DNA of 64,000 nt from Rhodobacteraceae bacterium M382 (GTDB taxonomy: Bacteria; Pseudomonadota; Alphaproteobacteria; Rhodobacterales; Rhodobacteraceae), in contig CP081098.1 of the NCBI GenBank assembly GCA_025141015.1, positions 124,001 through 188,000 of the forward strand. The letters are read 5' to 3'. A model generated the notes under the pieces. It was given only the letters and a program-made list of their open reading frames with translations. It was not told where the DNA came from and ran no database searches. The translations under genes were made by a program, and so were the position numbers. Of the stretch, positions 3,563 through 22,006 are shown in pieces (the first letter of the stretch is position 1; each line of letters begins with the position of its first letter).

Positions 3563-4993
3563 CTACCCGGCAAAGCTGTAGGCCGTTTTGACCGTGGTAT
3601 AAAACTCCGCAGCATACCGCCCCTGTTCGCGCGACCCATGCGACGATCCTTTGCACCCACCAAAAGGCACATGATAGTCAACGCCGGCCGTCGGCAGGTT
3701 AACCATCACCATGCCTGCCTCGCTTTGACGCTTGAACTCGCGCGCGTATTTCAGGCTGGAGGTACAGATCCCCGACGACAGGCCAAATTCTGTGTCATTG
3801 GCCACGCTCAGCGCATGATCAAAGCCTGAAACCTTGATGATGCTGGCGCAGGGACCAAAGATCTCCTCGCGGCTGGATCGCATGTCGTTGGTCGCATTCA
3901 GGAACAACGCCGGGATTTGATAATATCCGGTTGTGTCCCGGTCTACGTGTTCTCCGCCAATAACTTCGGCCCCTTCGGCCCGTGCCAGGTCCACATATTC
4001 AAGGTTCCCGACCAACTGCTTTTTCGACACCACCGGCCCGATCTGCACCGACGGATCCAGCGGATTGCCGACATTCAGAGCCTGCGCCTGAGTCACCAAT
4101 CGGTCGACAAAAGCATCGTGAATACCCGCATCGACGATGATCCGGCTCGAGGCCGTGCATCGTTGGCCGGTAGAAAAGAAGGCACCGTTCAACACAACAG
4201 GTACCGCAATATCCAAATCGGCGTCATCCATGACGACCATCGGGTTCTTGCCGCCCATTTCCAGCTGAATCTTTTTCATGCTGCGGGCCGCGTCTATGGC
4301 CAGGTTCTGCCCCACAGGAACGGACCCAGTAAACGAAATCGCGTTGATCCCACTGTGCGCGGACATTGCATTGCCCACAACGGATCCTTGTCCCATCACC
4401 AGATTGAACACGCCTGCGGGACACCCTGCCTCATGAAGAACCTCGGTCAACAAGTGGGCACTGGCCGGCGTCAAATCGGCGGGTTTGAACACAACAGTAT
4501 TGCCATAGGCCAGCGCAGGCGCAATTTTCCAGGCGGGAATGGCGATGGGAAAATTCCATGGCGTGATCAGGCCAACGACACCCACAGGTTCGCGCACCAC
4601 ATCGACATCCACATCCGTGCGCAATGATGCGATGGCATCACCTGCCACGCGGACCGCTTCGCCCGCAAAGAAACGGAACACCTGAGCAGCTCGGACAGTT
4701 TCACCAATGGCTTCTGCCAGGGTCTTACCCTCTTCCCGGGCCAGGACAGTGCCGATTTCGGTCTTGCGCGCAAACAACTTCTGCGCCACCGCCTCCAACA
4801 AGTCAGACCGCACCTGAGGCGACGCCGAAGCCCACCCTCTCAGAGCGCCGTTGGCGGCCTGGACCGCCTGATCAACCTGTTCGACCGAAGCGCGGGCATA
4901 GACACCGATCACCTCGGAAATATCTGCTGGATTGCGGTTCTCTACCGCGTCATGCCCGTCCACCCAGGCACCTGCAATTAAGTTCTGTTTCAT
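3563..4993 (-). CDS. NAD(P)-dependent aldehyde dehydrogenase, alpha-ketoglutarate semialdehyde dehydrogenase type
   Basis: A complete 476-residue ALDH-superfamily enzyme that oxidises an aldehyde to the acid. Visible signatures are the PWNFP motif (~145-149), catalytic Glu245 in LEMGGKNP and nucleophile Cys279 in FFSTGQRCTASSR. The C-terminal pattern PFGGCKGSSHGSREQGRYAAEFYT resembles the 2,5-dioxopentanoate (KGSA) dehydrogenase subgroup of pentose and hydroxyproline pathways, in part. It lies downstream of gabT but is separated from it by a strong terminator, so its link is proximity only. Succinate semialdehyde is an alternative substrate given the GabT neighbour. Confidence 0.85.
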   Translation of the reverse strand: MKQNLIAGAWVDGHDAVENRNPADISEVIGVYARASVEQVDQAVQAANGALRGWASASPQVRSDLLEAVAQKLFARKTEIGTVLAREEGKTLAEAIGETVRAAQVFRFFAGEAVRVAGDAIASLRTDVDVDVVREPVGVVGLITPWNFPIAIPAWKIAPALAYGNTVVFKPADLTPASAHLLTEVLHEAGCPAGVFNLVMGQGSVVGNAMSAHSGINAISFTGSVPVGQNLAIDAARSMKKIQLEMGGKNPMVVMDDADLDIAVPVVLNGAFFSTGQRCTASSRIIVDAGIHDAFVDRLVTQAQALNVGNPLDPSVQIGPVVSKKQLVGNLEYVDLARAEGAEVIGGEHVDRDTTGYYQIPALFLNATNDMRSSREEIFGPCASIIKVSGFDHALSVANDTEFGLSSGICTSSLKYAREFKRQSEAGMVMVNLPTAGVDYHVPFGGCKGSSHGSREQGRYAAEFYTTVKTAYSFAG

Positions 4994-5134: not shown

Positions 5135-6439
5135 CTATTCTGCTGCAACTGCCGTTGCGTTGATCGCAGCGTCGATTGCCGATTCGAGCACATCCAACGC
5201 CTCGTCGACCTGCTCCATCGGCGTCGTCAGCGGCGGCAAAAGACGTACAGCATTGGCACGGGTGCCGCAGGGCAGGATGATCAGCCCGCGGGCCTCAGCT
5301 TCGGCCACGATCGCCTGGGTCAGCGCCGGGTCGGGAGCGTTGCTGCCCCGGTCCGTGACCAGCTCGAACGCCACCATGGCACCTTGGCCGCGCACATCAC
5401 CAATTGCTTCGTAGCCCTGACGGGCCGCGATATCGGTCAGGCGTGCAATTATGCGGTCCCCGACCTCAGTGGCCCGCTCACACAGGTTTTCTTCGACGAT
5501 CACATCCAGAACTGCATGTGCCGCAGCCACCGCCAGCGGGTTGCCCGCATAGGTGCCGCCGATACCGCCCACAGGGGCGGCATCGACGACCTCGGCCCGA
5601 CCGGTTACGGCTGAGAGCGGAAAGCCACCGGCCAGTCCCTTTGCCATGGTCACCAGATCGGCAGCGACACCAGCATGTTCAAAGGCAAACAGTTTGCCGG
5701 TGCGTGCGATTCCCGATTGGACCTCATCCGCGATCAACAAGATCCCATGATCATCACAGATCTGGCGCAGCGCGCGCAGGAAATCTGGCGGGGCAATGTT
5801 GAAACCACCTTCACCCTGCACCGGTTCGATAATAATCGCGGCCACACGTTCGGGATCAATCGAGCTGCGCAACATGTTGTCCAGAACCGCCAGGGATTGT
5901 TCAACTGTCACCCCGTGGAACTCATTTGGGAAAGGCACGTGCAGGACCTCGGGCGGCATGGCACCGAAAGCTTTCTTATACGGGTTTACCTTGCCGCACA
6001 GCGCCATGCCCATCAGGGTTCGACCGTGGAACGCCCCGGAAAAGGCGATGACACCGGAGCGCCCAGTATAGGCGCGGGCCATTTTCACTGCGTTTTCGAC
6101 AGCCTCGGCACCGGTGGTGACCAGCATGGTTTTCTTGTCAAAGTCACCGGGGGTCGATGCATTCAGTCGCTCGGACAGGGCAATATAGCTCTCATACGGG
6201 GCGACGTGAAAACAGGTGTGGGTAAAGTTTTCGGCCTGTTTTGCCACCGCAGCCATGACTTTGGGGTGGCGATGGCCCGTGTTGTTCACCGCGATCCCGG
6301 CAGCAAAGTCGATGAAGCGATTACCATCCGCATCCCATAGTTCGGCGTTTTCCGCGCGAACCGCATAGATTCCACGGGTGGCGACACCCTTGGCCACGGC
6401 GGCCTCGCGGCGTGATTGGAGGTCAAGGCTGGCGCTCAT
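5135..6439 (-). CDS. gabT: 4-aminobutyrate-type aminotransferase (class III, PLP)
   Basis: A 434-residue class III aminotransferase that moves the terminal amine of GABA or a related omega-amino acid to 2-oxoglutarate. The order of motifs matches GabT: TTGAEAVENAVKMAR cofactor loop (~108-122), FHGRT (~138), EPVQGEGG, DEVQSG with Asp239, and PLP Lys267 in TMAKGLAGGFPLSAVTG. RBS AGAGGAG precedes the ATG. It is transcribed away from a PuuR-like XRE-cupin gene across a 113-bp spacer with a repeated TTGCGCA-type motif, so that regulator probably controls it. Exact amine substrate cannot be read from sequence. Confidence 0.9.
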   Translation of the reverse strand: MSASLDLQSRREAAVAKGVATRGIYAVRAENAELWDADGNRFIDFAAGIAVNNTGHRHPKVMAAVAKQAENFTHTCFHVAPYESYIALSERLNASTPGDFDKKTMLVTTGAEAVENAVKMARAYTGRSGVIAFSGAFHGRTLMGMALCGKVNPYKKAFGAMPPEVLHVPFPNEFHGVTVEQSLAVLDNMLRSSIDPERVAAIIIEPVQGEGGFNIAPPDFLRALRQICDDHGILLIADEVQSGIARTGKLFAFEHAGVAADLVTMAKGLAGGFPLSAVTGRAEVVDAAPVGGIGGTYAGNPLAVAAAHAVLDVIVEENLCERATEVGDRIIARLTDIAARQGYEAIGDVRGQGAMVAFELVTDRGSNAPDPALTQAIVAEAEARGLIILPCGTRANAVRLLPPLTTPMEQVDEALDVLESAIDAAINATAVAAE

Positions 6440-6552
6440 GCGATATGTCTCCTCTGCGTGCGCTTCGATTCTTCACATCATATTGCGCATTATTTTGAAC
6501 TTTACTACTTATAAATTGCGCAACATCCAGAGATTCGCCTATCCTAAGCAAA
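6440..6552. promoter_or_regulatory. Divergent gabT / XRE-cupin promoter region with two TTGCGCA-type sites
   Basis: AT-rich spacer between divergent genes. It contains TTGCGCAT at 6483-6490 and the palindrome TTGCGCAA at 6516-6523, the latter followed by CATCCA. Similar sites recur upstream of the TRAP operon and ATP-grasp gene (11434-11441 and 11485-11492). I infer candidate operators for the XRE-cupin protein. Confidence 0.5.
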
Positions 6553-7155
6553 ATGACACAGGGATATTCAGTCATGACAGATGATTTCGATGTTGGAGAC
6601 CGGTTAAAGACGCTGAGAACACAGTTTGGCATGTCCCAGCGACAACTTGCCGAGGCCGCCAATGTACCTCATGGGCAGATTTCCATGATCGAAACCAACC
6701 GGAGCAGCCCTTCGGTGGCTTCGCTGCGCAAGATTCTAGGCGGATTTGGCATCACCATGTCTGAATTTTTTGAGCCCGAATCTATTTCAGCTCAAAAAGC
6801 CTTCTTCACTCCGGCGGAAATGCGCGACCTGACGTCTCTCTTGTATCGGCGCGATGATCCGGCCCAACAAAAAATCACCATCATGCAGGTCGGCGACGCC
6901 AAGGCACATGGCCTGCAAATCCTGCACGAACGGTATGAAGCTGGTGCAGACACCGGCGATTCCATGATCGAACACGAGGCCAACGAAGGTGGCATCGTCG
7001 TCTCGGGCGAAGTCGAAGTGACCGTCGGTGACGAAGTCCGTGTGCTGAAAGCCGGGGACGCCTATCTGTTCAACAGCCGGGAACCGCATCGGTTCCGCAA
7101 TATCTCTGATCGCCCCGCCGAAGTCATCTCGGCCTGCACCCCACCTTATCTCTAA
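6553..7155 (+). CDS. XRE-cupin transcriptional regulator, PuuR-like
   Basis: A 200-residue regulator with an N-terminal XRE helix-turn-helix (about residues 14-68, LRTQFGMSQRQLAEAANVPH) and a C-terminal cupin (about 125-195, with LKAGDAYLFNSREPHRFRN). This is the architecture of PuuR, the E. coli putrescine-pathway repressor. The start is uncertain: ATG at 6553 or ATG at 6574 (AGGG lies about 11 bases before the latter). It is divergent from gabT and 29 bases upstream of a CoA-transferase gene, with which it is probably co-transcribed. Polyamine or amine sensing is inferred from family and neighbours. Confidence 0.9.
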   Translation: MTQGYSVMTDDFDVGDRLKTLRTQFGMSQRQLAEAANVPHGQISMIETNRSSPSVASLRKILGGFGITMSEFFEPESISAQKAFFTPAEMRDLTSLLYRRDDPAQQKITIMQVGDAKAHGLQILHERYEAGADTGDSMIEHEANEGGIVVSGEVEVTVGDEVRVLKAGDAYLFNSREPHRFRNISDRPAEVISACTPPYL

Positions 7156-7184
7156 CTTGACTTCCGTCATCAAAGGAAACGCTT

Positions 7185-8294
7185 ATGTCCCCTCTTGAAG
7201 GTCTCAAAGTGGTCGAACTGGCCCGCATCCTGGCCGGTCCCTGGATTGGCCAATCGCTGGCCGATCTGGGTGCGAACGTCACCAAAGTCGAGGCCGAAAG
7301 CGGCGATGACACCCGCGCCTGGGGGCCCCCATTTATCGAACGCGATGGGGACAAAACTGCTGCCTATTACTACGCTGCAAACAGGGGCAAGACCGCGGTC
7401 GTAGCAGACTTCCGATCCGCGGAAGGTCAAAAAATCGTGCGTGACCTGGTGGCCGACGCCGACATCCTGATCGAAAACTTCAAAGTCGGCGGATTGGCGA
7501 AATACGGGCTGGACTATGACAGTCTGCGGGAGCTGAACCCGCGGTTGATCTATTGTTCGATCACAGGGTTCGGACAGGACGGCCCTTATGCCAAACGCGC
7601 GGGCTATGATTTTTTGATCCAAGGCATGTCGGGGCTGATGTCGATCACGGGCGAACCCGATCGCCAACCACAAAAAGTAGGAGTGGCGGTAACGGATGTC
7701 GTGACCGGGCTTTATGGCACCATCGGGATTCTGGCGGCGGTGGAGCAACGTCACCGCACCGGGCTGGGTCAGCATATTGATATGTCGCTACTGGATTGCG
7801 CCACCGCACTGTTGGCCAATCAGGCGATGAATTACCTGGCCACCGGCAACAGCCCAATGCGCAAAGGCAATGACCACCCCAATATCTCACCCTATCAGGT
7901 ATTGCCCACGGCGGACGGGCATATCATTGTGGCCGTTGGCAATGACGGACAGTTCCAGCGGTTCTGCCGGGTGATCGAGCGCCTGGATCTGGCAGAGAAC
8001 CCCGATTATGCCAGCAACGGGTTGCGGGTGTCCAACCGCGACGCGTTGACAGCTGAGTTGGCGGACTCCCTGAGCAACTGGACCTCGGCCGAGCTGTTGT
8101 CTGCACTGGAAGCGGCCACTGTGCCTGCCGGGCCGATCAACTCTATCGGGCAAGCTTTTGAAGACCCTCAGGTGCAAGCCCGTGGACTGGTGATCGAACC
8201 CGAAGGCATCAAAGGCGTACGCGGCCCTTGGAAATTCTCGGACGCCGAACTGGCGCTGGACAAGACCGCACCGGTCCTGCCCAAGGCCCAGTAG
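7185..8294 (+). CDS. CaiB/BaiF family (class III) CoA-transferase
   Basis: A 369-residue member of the formyl-CoA transferase/CaiB family, which moves CoA between carboxylic acids. It opens with the family signature LEGLKVVELARILAGPW and DLGANVTKVE, and the expected catalytic aspartate is Asp142 in GYDFLIQGMSG. At 369 residues it is slightly short for the family (about 390-410) but shows no internal break. RBS AAAGGAA precedes the ATG. It follows the PuuR-like regulator and ends at a strong bidirectional terminator. The acid it activates is unknown; a product of the neighbouring amine pathway is a reasonable guess. Confidence 0.88.
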   Translation: MSPLEGLKVVELARILAGPWIGQSLADLGANVTKVEAESGDDTRAWGPPFIERDGDKTAAYYYAANRGKTAVVADFRSAEGQKIVRDLVADADILIENFKVGGLAKYGLDYDSLRELNPRLIYCSITGFGQDGPYAKRAGYDFLIQGMSGLMSITGEPDRQPQKVGVAVTDVVTGLYGTIGILAAVEQRHRTGLGQHIDMSLLDCATALLANQAMNYLATGNSPMRKGNDHPNISPYQVLPTADGHIIVAVGNDGQFQRFCRVIERLDLAENPDYASNGLRVSNRDALTAELADSLSNWTSAELLSALEAATVPAGPINSIGQAFEDPQVQARGLVIEPEGIKGVRGPWKFSDAELALDKTAPVLPKAQ

Positions 8295-8314
8295 GCCGCA
8301 TTCCGCAGATTCAG

Positions 8315-8348
8315 AAAACAGCCGCCTCGGGAACGAGGCGGCTGTTTT
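8315..8348. terminator. Bidirectional intrinsic terminator
   Basis: 15-bp perfect stem (8315-8329 with 8334-8348, core CAGCCGCCTCG) with a GGAA tetraloop and A/T runs on both sides. It lies between the convergent CoA-transferase and TRAP permease genes and can terminate both. Confidence 0.9.
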
Positions 8349-8410
8349 AGTTGGGGGTCACAGGTTTGGATCTATGCCCACAGACTCTAACGCAGACGCC
8401 AATCCCGCGA

Positions 8411-9730
8411 TCAGAACAGCAAACCCGGTAACCACAGCGCGATCTGCGGGAAGGCCACAACCAGCGCCAACCCGATAATCTGCAGCACCACAAACGGAAT
8501 CGCCGCCCAATATATGTCGCCAATGGTGATATCCGCCGGTGCAACCGATCGCATGTAAAACAGGTTGTAGCCGAACGGTGGTGTCAAATACGCGGACTGC
8601 ATAGACAGAATGAACAACACCGCAAACCATGTGGTGTCATAACCCAGATCCCGCACTATCGGGACGAACAACGGCACAGTGATGAACACGATGGCAAAAT
8701 CGTCCAGAAACATACCCAACACAAAGTAAGTGGCCAACATGGCGATGATCACCAGTATGGGTGACAATTCAAAATCTTCGATCAGCTCACCGACGATCAT
8801 CCCCGCACCCAGGCCCACATAGATTTTCGAGAAGAACACGGCCGCGATGGTGATCCACATCAACATTCCCATCAGCTTGGTCGTCGTCAGCATGACATAG
8901 CGCAGCATGTCCCAGTTGACCCGGCCGTGCAGCGCCGCAATCACCAACGCGCCAAATGCACCAATGGCAGACGCCTCAGACGGAGACGTCACTCCGCCAA
9001 TAATACACCCCAAGACCGTAGCAATCAGAACTCCTGGCGGGATCAAATGGCGCAGGGATTTCAGTTTTTCCAAACCGCTGAACCGCTCTTCATCCGGGGC
9101 GGGTGGGCCAAGGCTCGGGTTGAACCGGCAGCGCACCAATACATAAAGGATATATATCCCGGCCAGCATCAGCCCCGGCATCAGACCGGCGGCAAACAGT
9201 TTGCCCACGGAATCGCGACTGAGAAACGCATAGATGATCATCAACACCGAAGGCGGGATTAGGAAACCCAACGCGCCTCCGGCCATAATCGTGCCGGTCA
9301 CCAGTTTCTTGTCATAGCCGCGTTTCAGCATCGCAGGCAGCGCGATGATACCCAATGACACGGTGGCTGCGCCGGAAACACCGGCCATGGCGGCGATCAG
9401 GGCACAAATGATGACAGTACCGACCCCCAATCCACCGGGCACCCCCCCCATCAGCTTGTGGATCATCTCGAACAAGTCATCCGTGATGCCGCTCCGTTGC
9501 AGCACAAGCCCCATGAAGATAAATAGTGGCAACGCCACCAGCAGGAAATTGTCCATCGCGCTGTAGGTCGAGCTGACCAACAATTCGAGCCCACCGGGTC
9601 CCCACAACACAAAGGCGCTGCCAACGCCGGAAATCGTCAATGCCCAGGCCAGCGGCGATCCCATCGCCATCAAGGCCAGCATTGACAGGAACATGATCGC
9701 CGTCGTGGTCAGCGGATCGAGTTCAGCCAT
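8411..9730 (-). CDS. dctM: TRAP transporter large permease, DctM family
   Basis: A 439-residue inner-membrane protein, the ion-coupled translocation subunit of a TRAP uptake system. It is a near-continuous series of hydrophobic segments (about 12) with family landmarks MGLVLQRSGI, AAMAGVSGAATVSLG, GALGFLIPPSV and LTPPFGYNLFY. I chose the ATG at 9730 (MAELDPL) because GGAGGAGG lies just upstream; a longer frame adds eight residues that include this RBS. Last gene of the dctP-dctQ-dctM operon. Confidence 0.95.
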   Translation of the reverse strand: MAELDPLTTTAIMFLSMLALMAMGSPLAWALTISGVGSAFVLWGPGGLELLVSSTYSAMDNFLLVALPLFIFMGLVLQRSGITDDLFEMIHKLMGGVPGGLGVGTVIICALIAAMAGVSGAATVSLGIIALPAMLKRGYDKKLVTGTIMAGGALGFLIPPSVLMIIYAFLSRDSVGKLFAAGLMPGLMLAGIYILYVLVRCRFNPSLGPPAPDEERFSGLEKLKSLRHLIPPGVLIATVLGCIIGGVTSPSEASAIGAFGALVIAALHGRVNWDMLRYVMLTTTKLMGMLMWITIAAVFFSKIYVGLGAGMIVGELIEDFELSPILVIIAMLATYFVLGMFLDDFAIVFITVPLFVPIVRDLGYDTTWFAVLFILSMQSAYLTPPFGYNLFYMRSVAPADITIGDIYWAAIPFVVLQIIGLALVVAFPQIALWLPGLLF

Positions 9731-9776
9731 GTTTCCTCCTCCCCGGGCAACCATTGGCTACCCGCGTAAATGCGCC

Positions 9777-10352
9777 CTACTTGGTGGCGGCTTCCAATAA
9801 TTCGGGGTCAATGTCGCTCTCGTCTTCGCCCGCGCGAGGATCGACAAAATCAATTCCCAGCAGAACCAAAACCGAACGCAGCAATTCCGCGATGTTTTGC
9901 AGGATCACCAGGCCGACTGCGACAGGGATGACCGTCTTGATCGGGTAGATCGCCGGTTGCCAGATGCTTTTGTTCGAATACTCGCGTACTGCCCAACTGT
10001 CGGCGGCAAACTCAACGGCCATTTTAAAGAAGACACCCAGCACCACCAAGCCGATGGTAAAGATGATGGTGTCGCAGAACGCCTTGCCACGCGGCCCCAT
10101 CAGGCCATAGATCACTTCGGACCGGACATGTCCGCGATGGCGCAGGGTATAGGACCCAGCCAACATGCAGAACGCTCCGTACAACATTGTCGATGTCTCA
10201 TGCGCCCAAATGGTGGGCGAATTGAGGAAGTAGCGAGCCACGATTTCCAGCATCAGCACAGAGATCATGGCCAGGGTCAGCCATGAAATGGCCCGCCCGA
10301 CAAAATCGGACAGGCCATCCTGGGCGACCAGATATCTGGTCACCGCGCTCAT
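9777..10352 (-). CDS. dctQ: TRAP transporter small permease, DctQ family
   Basis: A 191-residue membrane protein with four predicted helices and the DctQ landmark ARYFLNSPTIWAHETS. It partners DctM. Its ATG overlaps the dctP stop by one base (TAATG), indicating translational coupling. The acidic C-terminal tail (~170-191, DPRAGEDESDIDPE) is longer than in many relatives and faces an unknown side. Confidence 0.93.
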   Translation of the reverse strand: MSAVTRYLVAQDGLSDFVGRAISWLTLAMISVLMLEIVARYFLNSPTIWAHETSTMLYGAFCMLAGSYTLRHRGHVRSEVIYGLMGPRGKAFCDTIIFTIGLVVLGVFFKMAVEFAADSWAVREYSNKSIWQPAIYPIKTVIPVAVGLVILQNIAELLRSVLVLLGIDFVDPRAGEDESDIDPELLEAATK

Positions 10353-11365
10353 TACAGGCGGCCTTGGGCCTTGGCATTGGCGATCAATGCGTCAACAAAT
10401 GCCTTGTTGCGGTCCGACCGTGCCGCCTCTTCGGCCCACACGCCTTGTGCAGCCTGTGTCAGCGCCTTGGAATCCGCATCGGGTAAAGTCGCGTATGCAA
10501 AGGTGCCATCTGCGACGCCGGCGTTGCCGTCTGCCAACCACTGGTGAATGTCATCTGCAAACTGCTGAATTGCGACGTTCAGGATCTGCTTGTGCTCATC
10601 GCTCAACTTGTCCCAAGCTGCGGGATTGGCCAAAAAGGTTTCAGTCCAGCCCGGCATCAGCATGTTCATAAAGGTATAGTTCTGGGCCGTTTCGTTCAGC
10701 TTGAGCTGTTCGTATTCAACCGGACCACCATAGATGGCACCATCGATCACGCCTGTCGACATGCCGATATACAGCTCCTGGGCCGGGAGATACACGGTTG
10801 GAATGTCAAAAGCGTTCAAAACCTTGGCGACATTGGATGTGGCGCGGATCTTGCGGGTTTTCAAATCTTCCAGAGAAGTGACCGGCTCTTTGGTCAGCAG
10901 GTCATAGTTATGACCATATCCCTTGCCCAGATACACGGTGCCGGCTTCGGAATACGCTTCGGTCAGAAGCGCTTCAACTTCGGGGCTGTCAAACAGCGCC
11001 TTCGCTTCATCCACGCTGGCCCAAGCCCCCGGAAGCCCGGCCTCGATGTTGCCGACATCCACCTGGCCAGACCAATACCCGCCGGTACCATGTACGATAT
11101 CTACAGTACCCTTCGAGACGGCATCAGCAAACTGATCCGACGCGACCAGTTCACCCCCACGAAAATACTGGATACGCAGCGAACCGTTTGAAGCTTCCTT
11201 GACAGCCTTTTTGAACTTCTTGGCGATCGGATCAATTTCAGTTCCATAAAAAGTGTGGAACCGCAGGCGCACGGTTTCGGCAGAAGCAGCCGATGCAACC
11301 GATGTCAGCGCAGCGGCACCTGCAATCATGCCCAGCGCGGCACGGCGGGAAAAAGAGAGTTTCAT
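10352..11365 (-). CDS. dctP: TRAP transporter solute-binding protein, DctP family
   Basis: A 337-residue periplasmic binding protein that captures the substrate for the DctQM permease. The N-terminus has a twin-arginine-like signal (MKLSFSRRAALGMIAGAAAL) with likely cleavage after ASA at about residue 29. The conserved ligand-carboxylate region is TRKIRATSNVAK (about 150-160). ATG at 11365 is preceded by AGGAGGAAC; a frame extending upstream lacks this support. First gene of its operon, divergent from the ATP-grasp gene across a region with TTGCGCAA sites. Substrate unknown, probably a carboxylated amine or amide used by the adjacent enzymes. Confidence 0.93.
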   Translation of the reverse strand: MKLSFSRRAALGMIAGAAALTSVASAASAETVRLRFHTFYGTEIDPIAKKFKKAVKEASNGSLRIQYFRGGELVASDQFADAVSKGTVDIVHGTGGYWSGQVDVGNIEAGLPGAWASVDEAKALFDSPEVEALLTEAYSEAGTVYLGKGYGHNYDLLTKEPVTSLEDLKTRKIRATSNVAKVLNAFDIPTVYLPAQELYIGMSTGVIDGAIYGGPVEYEQLKLNETAQNYTFMNMLMPGWTETFLANPAAWDKLSDEHKQILNVAIQQFADDIHQWLADGNAGVADGTFAYATLPDADSKALTQAAQGVWAEEAARSDRNKAFVDALIANAKAQGRL

Positions 11366-11758
11366 GGTTGTTCCTCCTGGTGGGGATTGATGCATCCCAA
11401 AATATTCCAGCAGACGGACATGCGATCAATTTTTTGCGCAAACATCCATCAGCATGGCGCACCACCTACAGGATTCAGTCATATTTGCGCAATAATTTAC
11501 GACTTCAATTCTTGCTTATTTGACGAATTCTCGGCAAAATCGATTGTGTCGCACGATGATTTCAAATTTTTATGGCATAGTTTCAAATATATGGCGAATA
11601 TGGGCTTCAAAAAATGGCAAAGTGACGCACTCAATATTATGAGCGAAATTGTATCGCTATTTAGAGCATCATTACTTTATAAGATTGTGCGCAAGACCGA
11701 ATCGAAGTTGCCCATGGGTCAACCTCCCGTCACCGCGCCCAGAAGGAGTAGCGCCCAT
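11366..11758. promoter_or_regulatory. Divergent TRAP operon / ATP-grasp promoter region
   Basis: A 393-bp AT-rich stretch without a credible gene. It carries the palindrome TTGCGCAA at 11434-11441 (followed by ACATCCA, as at 6516) and again at 11485-11492 (inside TATTTGCGCAATAATTT, close to the 6481 context). A related TTGTGCGCAA lies at 11685-11694. An open frame crosses the region into the ATP-grasp gene but looks non-coding. Confidence 0.5.
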
Positions 11759-13213
11759 ATGAGTTCCCAGAAACCGCCCCTTCGCGGGCTGACCGAGATT
11801 TTTCGTTTCTTGCGCCGCAATGAAACGCCAATCTATGTGATCATGCCGACACCCTTTAACCTGCTGGGATTGGACCAGTGGGTTGGTGGGCTGGAGTATG
11901 TAAATTACTTTGATATTTTTGACGGGCGTCACCCGCGTACATTCCTCCCCACTCAGACCGAGCCTCAGGATTTCAGGTCGATGGAGGACGTGGGCAACTA
12001 TCTGATCGATCACCCAGAGTTCCGAGCGCACGTTAAATCCCAGAGTCCTGGGATGGCGCTGTTCGTACAGTTCGATGACAAGACCGAAGAGCTGTGTGAA
12101 GAGGTCGGCCTGACCATCGGCTTGCCTTCAAACGACCTGCGCAACCGACTGGACAGCAAAATCGAAACCACCCGCCTGGGCAACGAGGCCGGAGTGCCCA
12201 GCGCGCCCAACATCATGGGCGAAGCCAATACCTATGGCGATCTGGTCAAACTGGCCGAACGCGCCGGATTGGGACGGGATCTGGTTGTTCAGACGCCTTA
12301 TGGAGACAGTGGCCGCACCACTTTTTTCATCAAATCCACAGACGATTGGGACAAATACGCCAACAAGATCATAGGCCAGTCGTTGAAAATCATGAAGCGG
12401 TTGAACCATCTGCCCGGCACCATCGAAGGCTGTGCCACACGACACGGATCGCTGGTTGGTCCTGTCATGACGGACATCACCGGGTTCGAAGAAATCACTC
12501 CGTACAAGGGCGGTTGGTGTGGAAATGACATTTCGCCCAGCATTCTGCCTGACGGCATCCCGGACAAGGTGCGCGACATGGCGCGCAAGTTCGGAGATCG
12601 CCTGTACCAGGAAGGATACAAGGGCGTGTTCTGCATCGACTTCTTGCTGGATACAGACACCAACGAGGTCTATCTGGGCGAGCTGAACCCGCGTATCAGC
12701 GGTGCCTCTCCGCCAACAAACCTGATCACCTCGACCTATGGCGGTTGCCCCCTGTTCCTGTTCCACCTGCTGGAGTTCATGGACGTCGAGTACGACGTTG
12801 ACATCCAAGAGATCCAGTCGCGCTGGAATCACTATGACCACTGGACCCAGCTGATCCTGAAACAAACCGACGATAAGGTCGAACTGATCACAAAAGCACC
12901 GCAATCAGGTATCTGGCAAATGGGCGACAATGGCGACATCGAATTTCTGCGCCCTGGTCACAATATCAACGCTCTGGGCAATGAGAACGAGGCGTTTTAT
13001 CTGCGCGTCTATGGGGTTGGCGAATACTGTTATCACGGTGCCGATCTGGGGTGCCTGCTGGCTCGTGGCCGGATGCAGTCGGACGATCGCGAACTGCTGG
13101 ATCGTGCCAAGAAGTGGAACAAGGCGATCAAGGGCGAATTCAAAAGTGTTCCGCTCTCTCCCCACACGCATGTTTCGCTGCCAACCGACATGACGGCAGG
13201 GAAATGGTTCTAG
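11759..13213 (+). CDS. ATP-grasp domain ligase (carboxylase-like), unknown substrate
   Basis: A 484-residue protein with a biotin-carboxylase/ATP-grasp-like fold: an N-terminal pre-ATP-grasp region, then the grasp core from about residue 130 (RLDSKIETTRLGNEAGVPSAP), a nucleotide lysine region DLVVQTPYGDSGRTTFFIKS (~190-210), and the metal-binding end of the site in FCIDFLLD and VYLGELNPRISG (~300-322). ATP-grasp enzymes join a carboxylate to an amine or other nucleophile via an acyl phosphate. The ATG at 11759 has a strong AGAAGGAG RBS. No biotinyl or carboxyltransferase partner lies nearby; the next two genes are amide hydrolases, overlapping or abutting it. I infer an amide ligase. Substrate cannot be assigned. 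Confidence 0.82.
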   Translation: MSSQKPPLRGLTEIFRFLRRNETPIYVIMPTPFNLLGLDQWVGGLEYVNYFDIFDGRHPRTFLPTQTEPQDFRSMEDVGNYLIDHPEFRAHVKSQSPGMALFVQFDDKTEELCEEVGLTIGLPSNDLRNRLDSKIETTRLGNEAGVPSAPNIMGEANTYGDLVKLAERAGLGRDLVVQTPYGDSGRTTFFIKSTDDWDKYANKIIGQSLKIMKRLNHLPGTIEGCATRHGSLVGPVMTDITGFEEITPYKGGWCGNDISPSILPDGIPDKVRDMARKFGDRLYQEGYKGVFCIDFLLDTDTNEVYLGELNPRISGASPPTNLITSTYGGCPLFLFHLLEFMDVEYDVDIQEIQSRWNHYDHWTQLILKQTDDKVELITKAPQSGIWQMGDNGDIEFLRPGHNINALGNENEAFYLRVYGVGEYCYHGADLGCLLARGRMQSDDRELLDRAKKWNKAIKGEFKSVPLSPHTHVSLPTDMTAGKWF

Positions 13214-14436
13214 AACCGAACACAAATGGGTTGGATGTGGACGCTGCCCATGCCCAATTGACGTTCCGGTGCTTATGCGAACAGGCACCGGACGATGCGT
13301 GGCGGCGTGTCGTTGCACACGGGTGGCCAGGTTGGCGCGAATGGTTTACGTCGCGCGGTGGAAATGACCTGCCCATCACAGAAGCACATCGTGCCCTGCG
13401 TCGGTTCATGCCCGAATTCGAACCCCTCGTGGAAGAGCTCAATCAGGCAACCAACCCAGACGAGTCCCTGCAAAGGTTTCTCACGTTCTGGTGCCCACCG
13501 CGCTATCTGGTGAACTGTTCGCAGGCGGTAATTGTGGATGACAAAGGTCCCTTTCTGATCCGCAATTATGATCTGGATCCTGCGCTGAATGAAGCGACAC
13601 TGCTGACTACTTCCTGGCGCAGCACGCGGGTCATGGGCATGGTCGAGGCCATGGCGGGGCTGGCTGACGGAATGAACGAACACGGGCTGACAGCGTCGCT
13701 GACCTTTGGTGGGCGGATCAACGTGGGCAAAGGGTTCGGTATTCCGTTGATCATGCGCTATTTGCTTCAGATGTGCCGTGATACCCAGGACGCAGTCGAC
13801 CTCTTGCGGGCTGTCCCCGCGCATATGTCTTATAACATCACGCTGATTGATGCCTCGGGGGATTGGTCAACCGTAATGGTCGCTCCAGACCGGCCAACAA
13901 TCGTTCGCCAACAACCTTGGGCAACCAACCACCAACTGGGCGTGGAATGGCCTCGGCATGGGCGGATCTCGAACACGTTGGGACGGGCGCAACATCTGGA
14001 ACGGCTGCTAGAAGATACAGCCACGAACGCCTGCACTCTGCACCAGACGTTCCGTCAAAAACCCGTGTTCAGCACAAACTACCGTCAGGGGTTCGGCACC
14101 GTCTACACCGCGGCCTACCGCCCCTTGCAGCGCGAGGTCCAACTGAGCTGGAGCGATGGAACAACGGTTGTTCGTACGATGGATCAGGTCGGCTCTCACA
14201 AACAGCCTATCGCCTATTTCGACAGCGGGTCCCGCGCACCCGCAACACCCACCTATACCCCACCAGCGTGGCACCCCGATTGGTACGACGTCTTTGTCAA
14301 AGCCACCCACCCGGCGCATAGCGGCCCGGAACAGGTCCGCCTGGCCGCGTTCTGGCGGCGCAACCATTTTGGGCAGGACCATGACTGGTGGAACCTGCTC
14401 CCCAACACCACCGACATTCTTCAGGAGGATAGCTAA
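13204..14436 (+). CDS. C45-type autoproteolytic Ntn amide hydrolase/acyltransferase
   Basis: A 410-residue protein resembling the C45 family (acyl-CoA:6-aminopenicillanate acyltransferase and relatives), Ntn hydrolases that cleave or form linear amides. The expected self-cleavage nucleophile is Cys105 in YLVNCSQAVIVDD, followed by the family pattern FLIRNYDLDP. Cleavage would release a ~104-residue propeptide. A second landmark is GLTASLTFGGRINVGKGFG. The ATG at 13204 overlaps the ATP-grasp stop by 10 bases and follows CAGGGAA; the stop overlaps the next gene's start by one base. Such tight packing suggests that ligase and hydrolase are made together. Confidence 0.78.
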   Translation: MVLEPNTNGLDVDAAHAQLTFRCLCEQAPDDAWRRVVAHGWPGWREWFTSRGGNDLPITEAHRALRRFMPEFEPLVEELNQATNPDESLQRFLTFWCPPRYLVNCSQAVIVDDKGPFLIRNYDLDPALNEATLLTTSWRSTRVMGMVEAMAGLADGMNEHGLTASLTFGGRINVGKGFGIPLIMRYLLQMCRDTQDAVDLLRAVPAHMSYNITLIDASGDWSTVMVAPDRPTIVRQQPWATNHQLGVEWPRHGRISNTLGRAQHLERLLEDTATNACTLHQTFRQKPVFSTNYRQGFGTVYTAAYRPLQREVQLSWSDGTTVVRTMDQVGSHKQPIAYFDSGSRAPATPTYTPPAWHPDWYDVFVKATHPAHSGPEQVRLAAFWRRNHFGQDHDWWNLLPNTTDILQEDS

Positions 14437-15347
14437 TGTCCCGTTTCGCCATCGCCGGCATCCAGATGCACATTACCACCCATCGCAATATCGAAGAGAT
14501 GCGCCAGCGGATGGAAATCCTGTTTCATTTGTACCCATGGGTCGAAATGGTCGTATTTTCTGAACTGGCCGCGCACGGTCCGGCACTGCATGCTTCCCAG
14601 CCGATAGGCGGAAGTTATGAACGTGAATTTGCCGAGATGGCCCGCCACTATGACACATGGCTGATCCCCGGGTCATATTTTGAAGAGCTGGACGGCGCGA
14701 TCTATAACACCACCCCGGTCTTCAACCCCGAAGGCGAGGTGGTCACCCGCTATCGCAAGATGTTCCCGTTCACACCCTATGAAAAAGGTGTCACCCCAGG
14801 TCGCGAATTCTGCGTCTTTGATGTCCCGAACGTGGGCCGTTTTGGTGTTTCAATCTGTTATGACCTGTGGTTCCCCGAAGTGACCCGGACCCTGACATCC
14901 ATGGGGGCCGAGGTCATTATCAACCCCGTATTGGCCAGCTTTGTCGATCGTCCGGCCGACCTTGCGATTGCCCAGGGTTCCGCGGCGATGTTCCAGTCCT
15001 ATATTTTCCACATCAACGGTTTGCTGGCAGGCGGAAACGGCTATTCCATGGTCATCGATCCGGCTGGCCAAATCCTGCATCGCGGCAACGTTCAAGAGGA
15101 AATGATCCCCATCGAAGTGGACTTCGAACTGGTTCGTCATCAACGCCGCAATGGTATCCTGAACATGGGTCAGCCGTTGAAAAGCTTTCGCGACAACACC
15201 GTCGAATTCCCGCCCTACCAGCCCGGGTTTGACCGCGGCTATCTAAATTCTCTCGGGCCGCTGCAAAAGCCCGCCCGGAGGGCAGGGAAAACGGCAATCG
15301 CTGCCCTGCCAGCCGCGATGCCCGCAACCGATCAGAAGACCGGTTGA
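14436..15347 (+). CDS. Carbon-nitrogen hydrolase (nitrilase superfamily amidase)
   Basis: A 303-residue amidase-type enzyme with the nitrilase catalytic set visible: Glu43 (VVFSELAAHG), Lys108 (TRYRKMFPF), Glu116 (PYEKGVTPG) and nucleophile Cys141 (GVSICYDLWFPE). It hydrolyses non-peptide C-N bonds. The start ATG overlaps the C45 gene's stop (TAATG) with RBS AGGAGG. The last ~40 residues are Ala/Pro/Lys-rich and outside the conserved fold. It is the second amide hydrolase in a row after an ATP-grasp ligase, which is unusual. Substrate unknown. Confidence 0.9.
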   Translation: MSRFAIAGIQMHITTHRNIEEMRQRMEILFHLYPWVEMVVFSELAAHGPALHASQPIGGSYEREFAEMARHYDTWLIPGSYFEELDGAIYNTTPVFNPEGEVVTRYRKMFPFTPYEKGVTPGREFCVFDVPNVGRFGVSICYDLWFPEVTRTLTSMGAEVIINPVLASFVDRPADLAIAQGSAAMFQSYIFHINGLLAGGNGYSMVIDPAGQILHRGNVQEEMIPIEVDFELVRHQRRNGILNMGQPLKSFRDNTVEFPPYQPGFDRGYLNSLGPLQKPARRAGKTAIAALPAAMPATDQKTG

Positions 15348-15386
15348 AAGAACCCCATTCCAAAACTTGATGTGAAAGGAAAGCAC

Positions 15387-15905
15387 ATGACTTCATCTCA
15401 CGCCAAAATCCCGACCAAACCCAAAGGGTTCAACGCCATCACCGCTTCGATTGCGGTTCCAAACATCTCGGATGCTGTTGCTTTTTATGCCGACACTCTG
15501 GGCGCTGACCTGATCGAATGCCTGACCATCCCCGGTTCTGAAACCGCCATCTATGCAACGATCAAAGTTTCCGGCACCACGGTTGTTCTGAACCTAGATG
15601 ACACGGCCCTGCCTTATGGCGAACCAGGCCACGTGACCCTGCACCATTATCTCAACGATATCGAAGAGGTGTTTGAAAAGGCAATCAACAACGGCGCGGT
15701 GGTTGTTTCGCCCATCACCCCGGCCTGGTGGGGGGATTTAACGGCCGTTCTGGTCGATCCCTTTGGTGTCCGTTGGAGCCTGGCGCAACGTGCCGAACAG
15801 TTAAACTCACAGGAACGCAGACAGCGACTCGAAGCGCTGTATAGCCCACCCAAAGTCGAAGAGGTGCCTGAGCAGGTTGGTCCGGGTTTCGAAGCGGGCA
15901 CCTAA
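15387..15905 (+). CDS. VOC superfamily (glyoxalase-like) protein
   Basis: A 172-residue protein with the vicinal-oxygen-chelate fold pattern: TASIAVPNISDAVAFYADTLGA, a middle strand VVLNLDD, then HVTLHHYLNDIEEVFEKAINNGA and VDPFGVRWSLAQR. Members are metal-dependent isomerases, lyases, dioxygenases or binding proteins. I chose ATG 15387 because AAAGGAA lies just upstream. It is 39 bases after the amidase gene, probably in the same operon. The actual reaction is unknown. Confidence 0.85.
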   Translation: MTSSHAKIPTKPKGFNAITASIAVPNISDAVAFYADTLGADLIECLTIPGSETAIYATIKVSGTTVVLNLDDTALPYGEPGHVTLHHYLNDIEEVFEKAINNGAVVVSPITPAWWGDLTAVLVDPFGVRWSLAQRAEQLNSQERRQRLEALYSPPKVEEVPEQVGPGFEAGT

Positions 15906-16000
15906 ATGCGGCAAAACTTATCAACCTATCGGTAAAACAACTTTGCCTGATCGCGGGCGGTCGCGGATAGTTTCCCTGAACTGCAAAAAAGGGAACCGAG

Positions 16001-17017
16001 ATGAAAATCGTCCGGACCGACCGCGAATTGCAAACGCCCCGATTGGACACAGCATTGACAGCGGCCGGGCATGAGCTTGTGTTGTTGCCAGACGGGGTAC
16101 CCGAAGATGATTTGATCGCGGCCTGCACCGATGCCGACCTGGTCCTGATGTGCTATACGCCGATTACACGGCGGGTGATCGAAAATGCGCCGCGGCTGAA
16201 AGGGATCGTGAAATACGGTGTCGGGATAGACGCCATCGACATCCCCGCCGCCATCGACAACGGCGTCTCTGTGGTCAACATCCCCGAATACGCCGAGGAA
16301 ACGGTGGCCGAAGGTGCATTTGCACTGATGATCGCGCTGGCCAAGAAGCTGACCCGTTTAAACACCCACATGACCACATCGGGCTGGGCCTGGCCCGAGC
16401 CGACTTGGCTAGGAACTGACATCGCTGGAAAGACGGTTGGAATTATCGGGTTGGGCAAAATCGGACGCAGCATGGCGCGCATGGCCGGAGCTGGGTTCCG
16501 GGCCCGGGTCATCGCCTACAGCCCGCATACCTCTGACGACGAGATGCGAAATCAGGGCGTTAAAAAGATAGAGAATTTGCACGATTTTCTGGAGCAATGC
16601 GATTTTGTCACCATCCATAGTGTCCTGAATGATGAAACCCACGGGCTGATCGGTGCGGCCGAACTGCGGACGATGAAGGAAACCGCATTTCTGATCAATG
16701 TGTCACGCGGTGCCATCGTGGACGAAACCGCGCTGGTTCAGGCGATCACACAGGGTTGGATTGCAGGCGCGGGATTGGATGTATTCAGCCAGGAACCTCT
16801 GACACGCCGTGGCCACCCGATGAGCGCACTGTTTGACCACCCCAATGTGATCCTATCCCCGCATCTGACGTTCTACACCGAACAGGCGATGCAACGGCTG
16901 GAAGACGAAACGCTGGAACGCTGTTTGGAGGTTCTGGAGGGGCGCGACGTTCAGATTACATCAACGGACCCAAGGTTGCGCGCCCAGACCTCGGGCGTCA
17001 CGTTCACAAGTCGGTAA
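16001..17017 (+). CDS. D-isomer-specific 2-hydroxyacid dehydrogenase
   Basis: A 338-residue NAD-dependent oxidoreductase interconverting a D-2-hydroxyacid and a 2-ketoacid. The nucleotide site is GIIGLGKIGRSMARM (~147-161), and the catalytic trio is Arg236 (NVSRGAIVDE), Glu265 (GLDVFSQEP) and His288 (SPHLTFYTEQ). RBS AAGGGAACCGAG precedes the ATG. It lies 95 bases after the VOC gene, likely the last member of the ATP-grasp operon, and converges on the EamA gene. Substrate unknown; phosphoglycerate, glyoxylate and hydroxypyruvate reductases belong to the same family. Confidence 0.9.
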   Translation: MKIVRTDRELQTPRLDTALTAAGHELVLLPDGVPEDDLIAACTDADLVLMCYTPITRRVIENAPRLKGIVKYGVGIDAIDIPAAIDNGVSVVNIPEYAEETVAEGAFALMIALAKKLTRLNTHMTTSGWAWPEPTWLGTDIAGKTVGIIGLGKIGRSMARMAGAGFRARVIAYSPHTSDDEMRNQGVKKIENLHDFLEQCDFVTIHSVLNDETHGLIGAAELRTMKETAFLINVSRGAIVDETALVQAITQGWIAGAGLDVFSQEPLTRRGHPMSALFDHPNVILSPHLTFYTEQAMQRLEDETLERCLEVLEGRDVQITSTDPRLRAQTSGVTFTSR

Positions 17018-17026: not shown

Positions 17027-17866
17027 TCATTTTCCCAAAGCAATCAGGATTATGCCGGCTCCAACGACCATCGCGGCAAACAATCGTGTGCTCCGGGGCC
17101 CCTCGCCAAACCACATCACTCCGATCAACGCAGCAAAAATCACTGACGTTTCCCGCAGCGCTGATACAAGCCCCAGAGGAGCCAGCGTCTTGGCATACAG
17201 AACCAGCGCATATGCGGTTCCCGACACAATGCCGCCCATGAATCCAAGAAACAGCGCCTTGGCCGGTTCGGCCCGCAGTCGGTCAATCCGGGTCGGGAAC
17301 AGGAACAAGACGATCAGGATCTTGGACAGAAACAACCATGTGATATAACTTAACGCATTGCCCGACAGCCGGACACCTACCCCGTCCACCAACGTATAGA
17401 TCACCACGGTTCCGCCAATCCCCAAGGCTGCAAAAACCGCATTCTTGGACAGGGTCGATTGAAACGCACCGCGCGCCAAAAGCATTATTCCCAGGGACAC
17501 GCACAGGATTCCGATCCACGCTTGGATCGGCAGTTTCTCTCCCACGATGCCCTGTGCCCCGAGCGCCACCATAACCGGCGCAAAACCGCGTGCGACCGGA
17601 TAGATCAGGCTCAGATCCCCCATCCGGTACCCGATGTTCAACATAAAGAAATAGACCCAGTGGATCAGAATGGACGCCACCATATACGGGATAGCGGCCA
17701 TATTCGGTGCGGGGACAAAGCCAATGAAAACCAGGCTCCAAACCACATGCCCCAAGGCAATCATGCCCAGGGTGATCACCCGATCTCCCGCACCTTTGAC
17801 AATGGCATTCCACAAGGCATGGAGAAAGGCGGCCGACAGAACGACCACCCCAACCCAAACTGTCAT
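17027..17866 (-). CDS. EamA/DMT-family transporter
   Basis: A 279-residue inner-membrane protein with about ten hydrophobic helices arranged as two EamA repeats (for example GDLSLIYPVARGFAPVMVALG in the first and LGLVSALRETSVIFAALIGVMWFGE in the second). The family moves small metabolites. Its ATG overlaps the stop of the PbfA-like gene by four bases (ATGA), so the two are translationally coupled and the transporter probably serves the phosphonate pathway. Direction and substrate are unknown. Confidence 0.88.
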   Translation of the reverse strand: MTVWVGVVVLSAAFLHALWNAIVKGAGDRVITLGMIALGHVVWSLVFIGFVPAPNMAAIPYMVASILIHWVYFFMLNIGYRMGDLSLIYPVARGFAPVMVALGAQGIVGEKLPIQAWIGILCVSLGIMLLARGAFQSTLSKNAVFAALGIGGTVVIYTLVDGVGVRLSGNALSYITWLFLSKILIVLFLFPTRIDRLRAEPAKALFLGFMGGIVSGTAYALVLYAKTLAPLGLVSALRETSVIFAALIGVMWFGEGPRSTRLFAAMVVGAGIILIALGK

Positions 17867-19218: not shown

Positions 19219-19230
19219 GGGGCCTCGCTG

Positions 19231-19257
19231 AAAAAAGGGCGGCCCAAATGGGCCGCC
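19231..19257 (-). terminator. Intrinsic terminator between phnY and pbfA-like gene
   Basis: 8-bp stem GGCGGCCC / GGGCCGCC (19238-19245 with 19250-19257) with a 4-nt loop and six T's on the minus strand. It sits in the 58-bp gap between the phnY stop and the pbfA-like start and should reduce or stop transcription after phnY. Confidence 0.8.
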
Positions 19258-19276
19258 AGGGAGAACTTGGAAATGA

Positions 19277-21984: not shown

Positions 21985-22006
21985 GAAAGTAGTTCCTCTT
22001 ATGATC

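What the first reader, a model, noticed from the sequence alone, without database searches (positions are those of the whole stretch)
6440..17017. PuuR-regulated ATP-grasp / tandem amidase / TRAP cluster: candidate undescribed catabolic pathway
Seen: a PuuR-like XRE-cupin gene, GabT, a CaiB CoA-transferase, a DctPQM importer, and an operon of ATP-grasp ligase, C45 Ntn hydrolase, nitrilase amidase, VOC and D-2-hydroxyacid dehydrogenase, all within 11 kb. Known: in the Puu pathway putrescine is glutamylated, oxidised, then freed by an amide hydrolase under PuuR. Inference: this cluster may be a parallel protect-process-deprotect route with an ATP-grasp ligase in place of the glutamine-synthetase-like PuuA and a C45 or nitrilase enzyme in place of PuuD. 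The final products would enter via GabT, an aldehyde dehydrogenase and a CoA ester.
Basis: partly seen in the sequence, partly recalled or inferred. Interest (0 to 1): 0.75.

Follow-up and report, generated by a model that had tools for sequence, protein, structure and literature searches.

The report
Undescribed ligase–hydrolase–amidase catabolic module
A marine bacterium carries three enzymes of unknown role, a ligase and two amide-cutting enzymes, that tend to be inherited together in its relatives and appear to be controlled together with genes that burn GABA-like amino acids, which points to a breakdown pathway that may not have been described yet.

Summary
All the observed genes are present. 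Ligase and C45 occur in the same 12 of 101 related genomes, the amidase in those 12 plus one. In 19 gammaproteobacterial loci an unrelated amidase-signature enzyme stands in for the nitrilase. Importers vary (DctPQM, TAXI-TRAP, Opp/Dpp, SDF). A second clade adds a decarboxylase of the Rv2531c family. Neighbours elsewhere include Puu-like genes, arginine/agmatine genes, an ectoine cluster, and GabT/SSADH/PuuR. The palindrome between GabT and PuuR recurs between DctP and the ligase in the window and in relatives with GabT/PuuR (one marginal), giving 'PuuR-regulated' sequence support. The D-2-hydroxyacid dehydrogenase is not part (0 of 115 loci). 'Ligase in place of PuuA' is unproven: two Sulfitobacter loci carry PuuA- and PuuB-like genes beside the module. 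Most likely it is a ligate–process–release route for carboxylate-bearing omega-amino or guanidino compounds, ending in GABA or 5-aminovalerate. Substrate, chemistry and the second hydrolase's step are unknown. My six literature searches found no description of it.

The parts
11759..13213 (+). ATP-grasp ligase, 484 aa, NCBIfam NF005096/PRK06524 ('biotin carboxylase' by name only)
   Evidence: 730.6 bits vs cut-off 684; AF2 pLDDT 90.0, best folds biotin carboxylases and PurK at 12-15% identity
13204..14436 (+). C45-family Ntn hydrolase/acyltransferase; nucleophile Cys (residue 105 from ATG 13204), RxYD and NxQ invariant in 33 aligned sequences
   Evidence: NF040521 151.3 bits vs cut-off 85; Pfam AAT; AF2 best fold 2x1c isopenicillin N acyltransferase; alignment; start
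14436..15347 (+). carbon-nitrogen hydrolase (nitrilase superfamily) amidase with Glu/Lys/Cys motifs; subfamily unnamed
   Evidence: Pfam CN_hydrolase 92.7 bits; best NCBIfam far below cut-off; co-inherited with ligase and C45; motifs
15387..15905 (+). VOC/glyoxalase-family protein, frequent companion
   Evidence: Pfam; 27 of 80, 0 of 9 and 2 of 26 ligase loci
10352..11395 (-). TRAP solute-binding protein DctP, divergent from the ligase; keeps an Arg aligned with that of keto-acid and lactate binders
9777..10352 (-). TRAP small permease DctQ
8411..9754 (-). TRAP large permease DctM
11422..11441 (.). candidate PuuR-like operator in the DctP|ligase promoter
   Evidence: best non-self match in 64 kb to the palindrome of the GabT|PuuR region
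11485..11504 (.). second candidate operator, DctP|ligase promoter
   Evidence: next-best non-self match in the window, by a thin margin (11.5 vs 10.9 for the next)
11627..11646 (.). third, weaker candidate operator
   Evidence: 7th-best site in the window, self counted
6483..6502 (.). candidate operator between GabT and PuuR-like gene
   Evidence: related palindromes in window, L001, L002, L003, L061
6553..7155 (+). PuuR-like XRE-cupin regulator
   Evidence: NF007408 118.2 bits vs cut-off 211; 33% identity to E. coli PuuR
5135..6439 (-). GabT/PuuE-type 4-aminobutyrate (or 5-aminovalerate) aminotransferase
   Evidence: TIGR00700 552.7 bits vs cut-off 506.65; 55% to E. coli PuuE
3563..4993 (-). 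aldehyde dehydrogenase, closest to alpha-ketoglutaric semialdehyde/2,5-dioxovalerate models, below cut-off
7185..8294 (+). CaiB-family CoA-transferase, closest to succinate-glutarate CoA-transferase, below cut-off; accessory
   Evidence: 4 of 80, 0 of 9 and 1 of 26 loci (the one is the repeat of L061)

Best explanation
The core is a three-enzyme catabolic module: an ATP-grasp ligase, a C45 Ntn hydrolase and a nitrilase-type amidase (an amidase-signature enzyme in some gammaproteobacteria). A substrate carrying a carboxylate enters through the TRAP importer. The ligase uses ATP to form an amide on an omega-amino or guanidino-type compound. Separate enzymes encoded elsewhere or beside the module (amine oxidase, transaminase, aldehyde dehydrogenase, ureohydrolase, decarboxylase) process the remaining end. 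C45 then cuts the amide, and the amidase cuts a second amide or a leaving piece. The product is GABA (or 5-aminovalerate in this clade), which GabT and the aldehyde dehydrogenase pass to succinate (or glutarate, then CaiB). A PuuR-like repressor controls both the GabT side and the TRAP/ligase side. Shown by sequence: gene content, gene overlap, co-inheritance, neighbours, shared palindrome. Inferred: all chemistry, the order of steps, the effector, and the C4/C5 end product.
For: Ligase and C45 in the same 12 of 101 genomes, amidase in those 12 plus G061 (Fisher about 8e-16 and 1e-14, not corrected for kinship). 74 of 115 ligase loci hold C45 plus an amidase, 0 of 20 controls. An amidase-signature enzyme in 19 of 80 loci, none of which holds the nitrilase as well. 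Neighbours: GabT in 20 of 115 and PuuR-like in 15 of 115; SSADH above cut-off in L037 and L053; DAO, agmatinase and ALDH in L021 and relatives of them in L033; racemase, ureohydrolase, RidA, AruI and ALDH in L013 and in Shinella; PuuA- and PuuB-like genes in L006 and L010; decarboxylase in 35 of 115; doe/eut ectoine genes around the module in L137 and L140. Shared palindrome GabT|PuuR and DctP|ligase: leave-one-out p 0.017 (window), 0/300 (L001), 0.010 (L002), 0.060 (L003), 0/300 (L061); 0.08 to 0.84 in nine loci without GabT/PuuR nearby. DctP keeps the aligned Arg of keto-acid and lactate binders (that this Arg binds carboxylate is recalled).
Against: No substrate, product or activity is known. 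A protect-deprotect scheme needs one hydrolase, and here there are two. In AruI-type loci no free amine seems to need protection. PuuA- and PuuB-like genes coexist with the module in L006 and L010 and the window's genome has other PuuA-like genes. 95 of 115 loci have no GabT and 100 of 115 no PuuR-like gene in the stretch; GabT against controls is only p = 0.043 and GabT appears in 3 of 16 ligase clusters at 75% identity. 16 of 115 loci have ligase and amidase but no C45 in the stretch: twelve among L040-L058, L062, L013, and two short contigs (L065, L073). L013, which ties the module to the AruI genes, is one of them. The shared operator separates poorly at the margin (L003 0.060 against L039 0.08 and L005 0.09) and was not found on both sides in 16 loci of other clades.
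Confidence: 0.42

Rival explanations
1. The module attacks the guanidino or urea end. The ligase, related to biotin carboxylase and carbamoyl-phosphate synthetase, carboxylates a guanidino or ureido nitrogen with ATP and bicarbonate, and the amidase and C45 then hydrolyse the activated group, as urea carboxylase and allophanate hydrolase do.
For: Best folds are biotin carboxylases and PurK. The amidase is a nitrilase-family enzyme nearest carbamoyl hydrolases (far below cut-off) or an amidase-signature enzyme, a superfamily with weak matches to allophanate hydrolase. Arginine, agmatine and guanidinobutyrate genes neighbour it.
Against: The bicarbonate-side residues of biotin carboxylase (Q294, V295, E296, numbering recalled) align by eye with S314, G315, A316, although carbamoyl-phosphate synthetase also lacks them (recalled). 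No biotin carrier among the 18 window genes scanned. Ectoine and GABA neighbourhoods have no guanidine.
Confidence: 0.15
2. A biosynthetic or salvage role: C45 acts as an acyltransferase, as isopenicillin N acyltransferase does, and the ligase and decarboxylase build a conjugate of an arginine- or ornithine-derived amine; importers recover it.
For: C45 fold match is isopenicillin N acyltransferase. In Rhizobium the set sits by nif genes and in Shinella near an adenylating enzyme, carrier protein and asnB on the other strand.
Against: Repeated coupling to importers, GabT, SSADH and catabolic clusters, and shared palindrome with GabT.
Confidence: 0.13
3. Two neighbouring but separate units: a 5-aminovalerate-to-glutaryl-CoA module (ALDH, GabT, PuuR, CaiB) and an unrelated TRAP/ligase/C45/amidase pathway.
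For: Roseobacter loci such as L004-L006 and L008-L011 carry TRAP, ligase and C45 without GabT or PuuR in the stretch; CaiB is confined to a few close relatives.
Against: Other GabT/PuuR neighbourhoods in different arrangements (for example L020, L029, L037, L082, L114, L121, L124) and the shared palindrome.
Confidence: 0.15
4. It is simply the Puu pathway with replaced enzymes: the ligase is a functional PuuA and C45 or nitrilase a functional PuuD for putrescine.
For: GabT is 55% identical to PuuE, the regulator 33% to PuuR; DAO and ALDH near the ligase in L021, L029 and L033.
Against: PuuA- and PuuB-like genes beside the module in L006 and L010; PuuA-like genes elsewhere in this genome; no DAO gene among the 18 window genes scanned; importer keeps a carboxylate-type Arg.
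Confidence: 0.12

Closest known systems
Puu (gamma-glutamylputrescine) pathway of E. coli
   Same: PuuR-like regulator, PuuE-like GabT, ligase plus amide hydrolase logic
   Different: ligase is ATP-grasp, not related to PuuA; C45 and nitrilase are not related to PuuD; two hydrolases; TRAP importer; no PuuB-like gene in the window cluster
AST (arginine succinyltransferase) pathway (recalled)
   Same: acylate, process, deacylate scheme with a class-III transaminase and aldehyde dehydrogenase
   Different: ATP-driven ligase instead of succinyl-CoA transfer; AST genes were not searched for
Ectoine degradation (doeABXCD/eut)
   Same: in L137 and L140 the module lies between a doeX-like Lrp gene and doeC/doeD-like genes
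   Different: in Halomonas elongata, from the passages I saw of PMC3187862, doeA, doeB, doeX, doeC and doeD have consecutive locus numbers with nothing between
Arginine transaminase/AruI route to 4-guanidinobutyrate and GABA
   Same: module adjoins such genes in Shinella and L013
   Different: the S. meliloti network rebuilt from 14 named enzymes (passages of PMC7268258) lists no ligase, C45 protein or nitrilase
Biotin carboxylase / NCBIfam PRK06524
   Same: full match to PRK06524; biotin-carboxylase-like ATP-grasp fold
   Different: no biotin carrier among the window genes scanned; bicarbonate-site residues appear changed
Rv2531c-type amino acid decarboxylase
   Same: decarboxylase of the second clade matches 9n0n/9n0o over about 900 residues
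   Different: no match in the window's genome at E 0.001; activity of the family not clarified (passages of PMC12910592)

Membership tests
Puu pathway | glutamine-synthetase-like PuuA | tested here: not met
   ligase vs PuuA E = 0.48 over 89 aa; ligase is NF005096
Puu pathway | PuuD-type hydrolase | tested here: not met
   C45 and nitrilase vs PuuD: no alignment beyond 6 residues
Puu pathway | PuuB flavin oxidase in the cluster | tested here: not met
   no DAO gene among 18 genes scanned in window 36-22041; DAO near the ligase in L021, L029, L033
Puu pathway | PuuR regulator and operator | tested here: inconclusive
   33% identity; NF007408 118 vs cut-off 211; shared palindrome
Puu pathway | gamma-glutamylation of putrescine | not testable with these tools
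   needs enzyme assay
NCBIfam NF005096 (PRK06524) | score above curated cut-off | tested here: met
   730.6 vs 684
C45 autoproteolytic acyltransferase/hydrolase (NF040521) | score above cut-off and catalytic Cys | tested here: met
   151.3 vs 85; Cys invariant in 33 aligned sequences; fold
Biotin carboxylase | bicarbonate-site residues and biotin carrier partner | tested here: inconclusive
   S314-G315-A316 at the aligned positions, by-eye alignment with recalled numbering; no carrier among 18 window genes scanned
N-carbamoylputrescine amidase | NCBIfam TIGR03381 cut-off | tested here: not met
   64.7 vs 410.25 bits
GABA transaminase | TIGR00700 cut-off | tested here: met
   552.7 vs 506.65
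Succinate-glutarate CoA-transferase | NF052585 cut-off | tested here: not met
   527.1 vs 750 bits
Ectoine catabolism cluster | DoeA and DoeB present | tested here: not met
   no such gene among the window genes scanned; present in L137 and L140; rest of the window's genome not searched

The most novel reading that the evidence does not exclude
A second, glutamine-synthetase-independent way of taking apart omega-amino and guanidino compounds: an ATP-grasp ligase, a C45 Ntn hydrolase and an amidase form a near-obligate trio that serves GABA, arginine/polyamine and ectoine-type breakdown across Proteobacteria, with its own decarboxylase of the orphan Rv2531c family in one branch.
Probability: 0.35. 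Interest if true: 0.75.

Novelty: new variant of a known kind. Interest (0 to 1): 0.6.

Why it matters
The ligase is annotated 'biotin carboxylase' and the hydrolase 'C45 family peptidase'; both names probably mislead. A trio with matching presence in 12 of 101 genomes, an exchangeable amidase and exchangeable importers is a well-defined target for pathway discovery. It sits by nif genes on Rhizobium plasmids and in marine roseobacters. It also gives an operon context to the Rv2531c-type decarboxylases, whose activity is described as not clarified.

Tried and rejected
Considered and dropped: homarine catabolism (one paper search, no support); other osmolytes (an idea only, not tested); the carboxylase reading as main case; D-2-hydroxyacid dehydrogenase as a member (0 of 115); DctP ligand from its nearest PDB chain 4uab (its ethanolamine ligand is recalled only, and that chain lacks the Arg that DctP keeps). 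An E. coli-like palindrome in 16 other loci gave single sites at GabT/PuuE-side promoters (L037 one mismatch, L113, L114, L123) and one weak site before C45 (L026), never on both sides; 2 chance sites in 20 control stretches. Paper searches for the module gave no description; the library holds CC-licensed PubMed Central papers only, so this is weak evidence of absence. Papers: passages only of PMC9870897, PMC10385936, PMC4960864, PMC12910592, PMC3187862, PMC7268258; search listings otherwise.

Limits: relatives were the best 80 of 548, so they lean to close relatives; ORF calling in my scripts was simple; identity thresholds for neighbours were my choice; controls were 20 stretches from six genomes picked by me. 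An earlier count (79 of 115, 13 of 17 clusters) used a looser amidase cut-off and a set with the window's own locus but without L019; I replaced it.


Full report
What is there. The ligase (484 aa) matches NCBIfam NF005096/PRK06524, called biotin carboxylase, at 730.6 bits against a cut-off of 684, and reaches only a sub-threshold Pfam hit. The C45 protein passes NF040521. The nitrilase-family protein fits no named subfamily (best 64.7 bits against 410.25). Ligase, C45 and nitrilase genes overlap end to start (ATG 13204 before the stop at 13211-13213; ATG 14436 on the last base of TAA), so they are probably translated together.

Structure. AlphaFold models have mean pLDDT 90.0 (ligase) and 84.4 (C45). 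The ligase is nearest biotin carboxylases and PurK (TM about 0.5-0.6 by query length, 12-15% identity in the 50 rows shown). C45 is nearest isopenicillin N acyltransferase 2x1c. Its nucleophile Cys and an RxYD motif are invariant in 33 aligned relatives. In the ligase, D294, E308, N310 and R312 are invariant in 38 sequences, while the residues that I align by eye with the bicarbonate site of biotin carboxylase read S314-G315-A316 (biotin carboxylase numbering recalled).

Conservation. A scan of genome contigs gave 548 relatives, of which the best 80 were kept. Counts, given as of 80, of 9, of 26: C45 55, 9, 25; nitrilase-type amidase 45, 4, 22; amidase-signature enzyme at 45% or more 19, 0, 0; decarboxylase 7, 7, 21; GabT 14, 1, 5; PuuR-like 8, 1, 6; VOC 27, 0, 2; small unnamed protein c5 43, 0, 1; DctP 15, 0, 1; TAXI-TRAP 0, 0, 7; CaiB 4, 0, 1; D-2-hydroxyacid dehydrogenase 0, 0, 0. 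None of these was found in 20 random stretches. C45 plus an amidase stood together in 74 of 115 loci and in 10 of 16 ligase clusters at 75% identity; C45 alone in 13 of 16; ligase and amidase without C45 in 16 of 115 loci. In 101 related genomes, ligase matches at E 1e-50 or better occur in G000, G001, G006, G008, G012, G015, G027, G030 (a partial match), G036, G038, G040 and G057 (14 further genomes had only weak matches, E 1e-7 or worse, which I set aside). C45 (E 1e-25 or better) occurs in exactly those 12 and the nitrilase (E 1e-60 or better) in those 12 and G061. Three of the C45 matches (G008, G027, G038) and the G061 amidase match have one stop inside the aligned stretch. In broader samples the ligase is rare: 10 of 387 genomes of the class and 12 of 397 of the phylum, the window's own included. 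This is an accessory, largely co-inherited trio. Fisher values ignore kinship.

Variants. In 19 gammaproteobacterial loci an amidase-signature protein (Pfam Amidase, 307 bits in L079) is present where the nitrilase is absent. In the second clade (ligase 40-51%) the order nitrilase, decarboxylase, ligase, C45 holds in 16 of 23 loci (L139 counted by its second C45 copy). The decarboxylase matches PDB 9n0n/9n0o over residues 13-912 at 828 bits; a 2026 review gives 9N0O for Rv2531c and says its activity was not clarified (passages of PMC12910592). Importers change: DctPQM, TAXI-TRAP with a Usp protein, Opp/Dpp ABC, SDF symporter, types that carry carboxylates or peptides (recalled). DctP keeps an Arg aligned with that of keto-acid and lactate binding proteins; its closest chain, 4uab, does not.

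Neighbours. GabT with SSADH or another ALDH and PuuR occurs in several arrangements, but in only 3 of 16 ligase clusters. L021 has a flavin amine oxidase, an agmatinase above cut-off and an ALDH upstream of the ligase; L033 has relatives of these. L013 and the Shinella plasmid have racemase, ureohydrolase, RidA, AruI and ALDH; L013 has no C45 in the stretch. L006 and L010 have PuuA- and PuuB-like genes, L010 and L017 a PuuC-like gene; the PuuA- and PuuC-like genes of L010 score below the NCBIfam cut-offs. L137 and L140 have the module inside a doe/eut ectoine cluster, with DoeA and DoeB above cut-off in both. The ectoine paper I saw in passages (PMC3187862) describes doeA, doeB, doeX, doeC and doeD without these genes between. 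Against the reading: 95 of 115 loci have no GabT in the stretch and 100 of 115 no PuuR-like gene, and GabT against controls gives only p = 0.043.

Regulation. The GabT|PuuR intergenic region of the window and of L001, L002, L003 and L061 holds palindromes like TTGCTCAATTTATTGAGCAT. With a matrix from these five sites, the best two other positions in the whole 64-kb window are 11422 (15.1) and 11485 (11.5), both between DctP and the ligase; the next site elsewhere scores 10.9, and 11627 ranks seventh. Leaving out the locus under test, the best DctP|ligase site beat 300 shuffles with p 0.017 (window), 0/300 (L001), 0.010 (L002), 0.060 (L003), 0/300 (L061). The nine loci without GabT/PuuR nearby gave 0.08 to 0.84, so the two groups touch at the margin. 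At up to 3 mismatches the palindrome occurs 22 times in the 5.17-Mb genome against 1 for the reversed pattern; two of these are 6483 and 11422, and one lies at C4:251070, close upstream of the best PuuB homologue. In the window alone two hits are reached in 3 of 100 shuffles. This is sequence evidence for joint control, not proof. I could not extend it to other clades.

Reading. The trio with GabT, PuuR and amine-processing enzymes works most like a ligate-process-release route. The window clade, with a glutarate-type CaiB and a non-SSADH ALDH, may end in 5-aminovalerate and glutarate; other clades with SSADH would end in GABA and succinate. The step of the second hydrolase is unexplained. The PuuA substitution idea is possible but weakened by coexisting PuuA-like genes. 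I give 0.42 to the best reading as written, and about 0.9 to the weaker claim that the trio is one functional unit. The recount lowered one figure (79 to 74 of 115) and did not change these odds.

Noticed in passing
17863-22041: Aminotransferase-III gene matches PbfA, (R)-1-hydroxy-2-aminoethylphosphonate ammonia-lyase (680 vs cut-off 525), next to an ALDH and a type I phosphodiesterase; probably an aminoethylphosphonate degradation cluster, separate from the finding.
   Followed up: partly
L023:12029-12409, L053:13572-14042, L079:6777-7169: A small protein (about 110-150 aa, here c5) with no Pfam match in three members and no NCBIfam match in one, carrying a motif like ARGxxREWxSLDRLxxWL, is encoded in 43 of the first 90 loci, usually near the ligase or C45; not found in the window, L001, L061 or the window's genome at the cut-offs used.
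   Followed up: partly
L082:9207-11960 and relatives: Decarboxylases of the Rv2531c family (PDB 9n0n/9n0o) are encoded with the module in most second-clade loci; the family's activity is described as not clarified.
   Followed up: partly
L137, L140: Ectoine degradation clusters with nitrilase, ligase, C45 and decarboxylase placed among the doe/eut genes.
   Followed up: partly
L083, L088: On two Rhizobium leguminosarum plasmids the decarboxylase-ligase-C45-ABC importer-amidase set lies directly beside nifHDKEN.
   Followed up: no
L053, L060, L068, L072, L074, L075: Gammaproteobacterial loci place the module next to an MttB-family methyltransferase and a DddP-like gene (DddP scored above cut-off in L068; the others by similarity), some also with a GbdR-like AraC regulator below cut-off.
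   Followed up: no
L019, L020: MAGs titled Exiguobacterium profundum and Blastopirellula carry Rhodobacterales-like copies; possibly mislabelled or contaminated bins.
   Followed up: no
36-2420: Glycine cleavage P-protein-like gene (794 aa), followed by an AraC regulator at 2545-3531.
   Followed up: no
L112:3498-4982: 494-aa open frame without Pfam or NCBIfam match between an agmatinase-like gene and the nitrilase.
   Followed up: no
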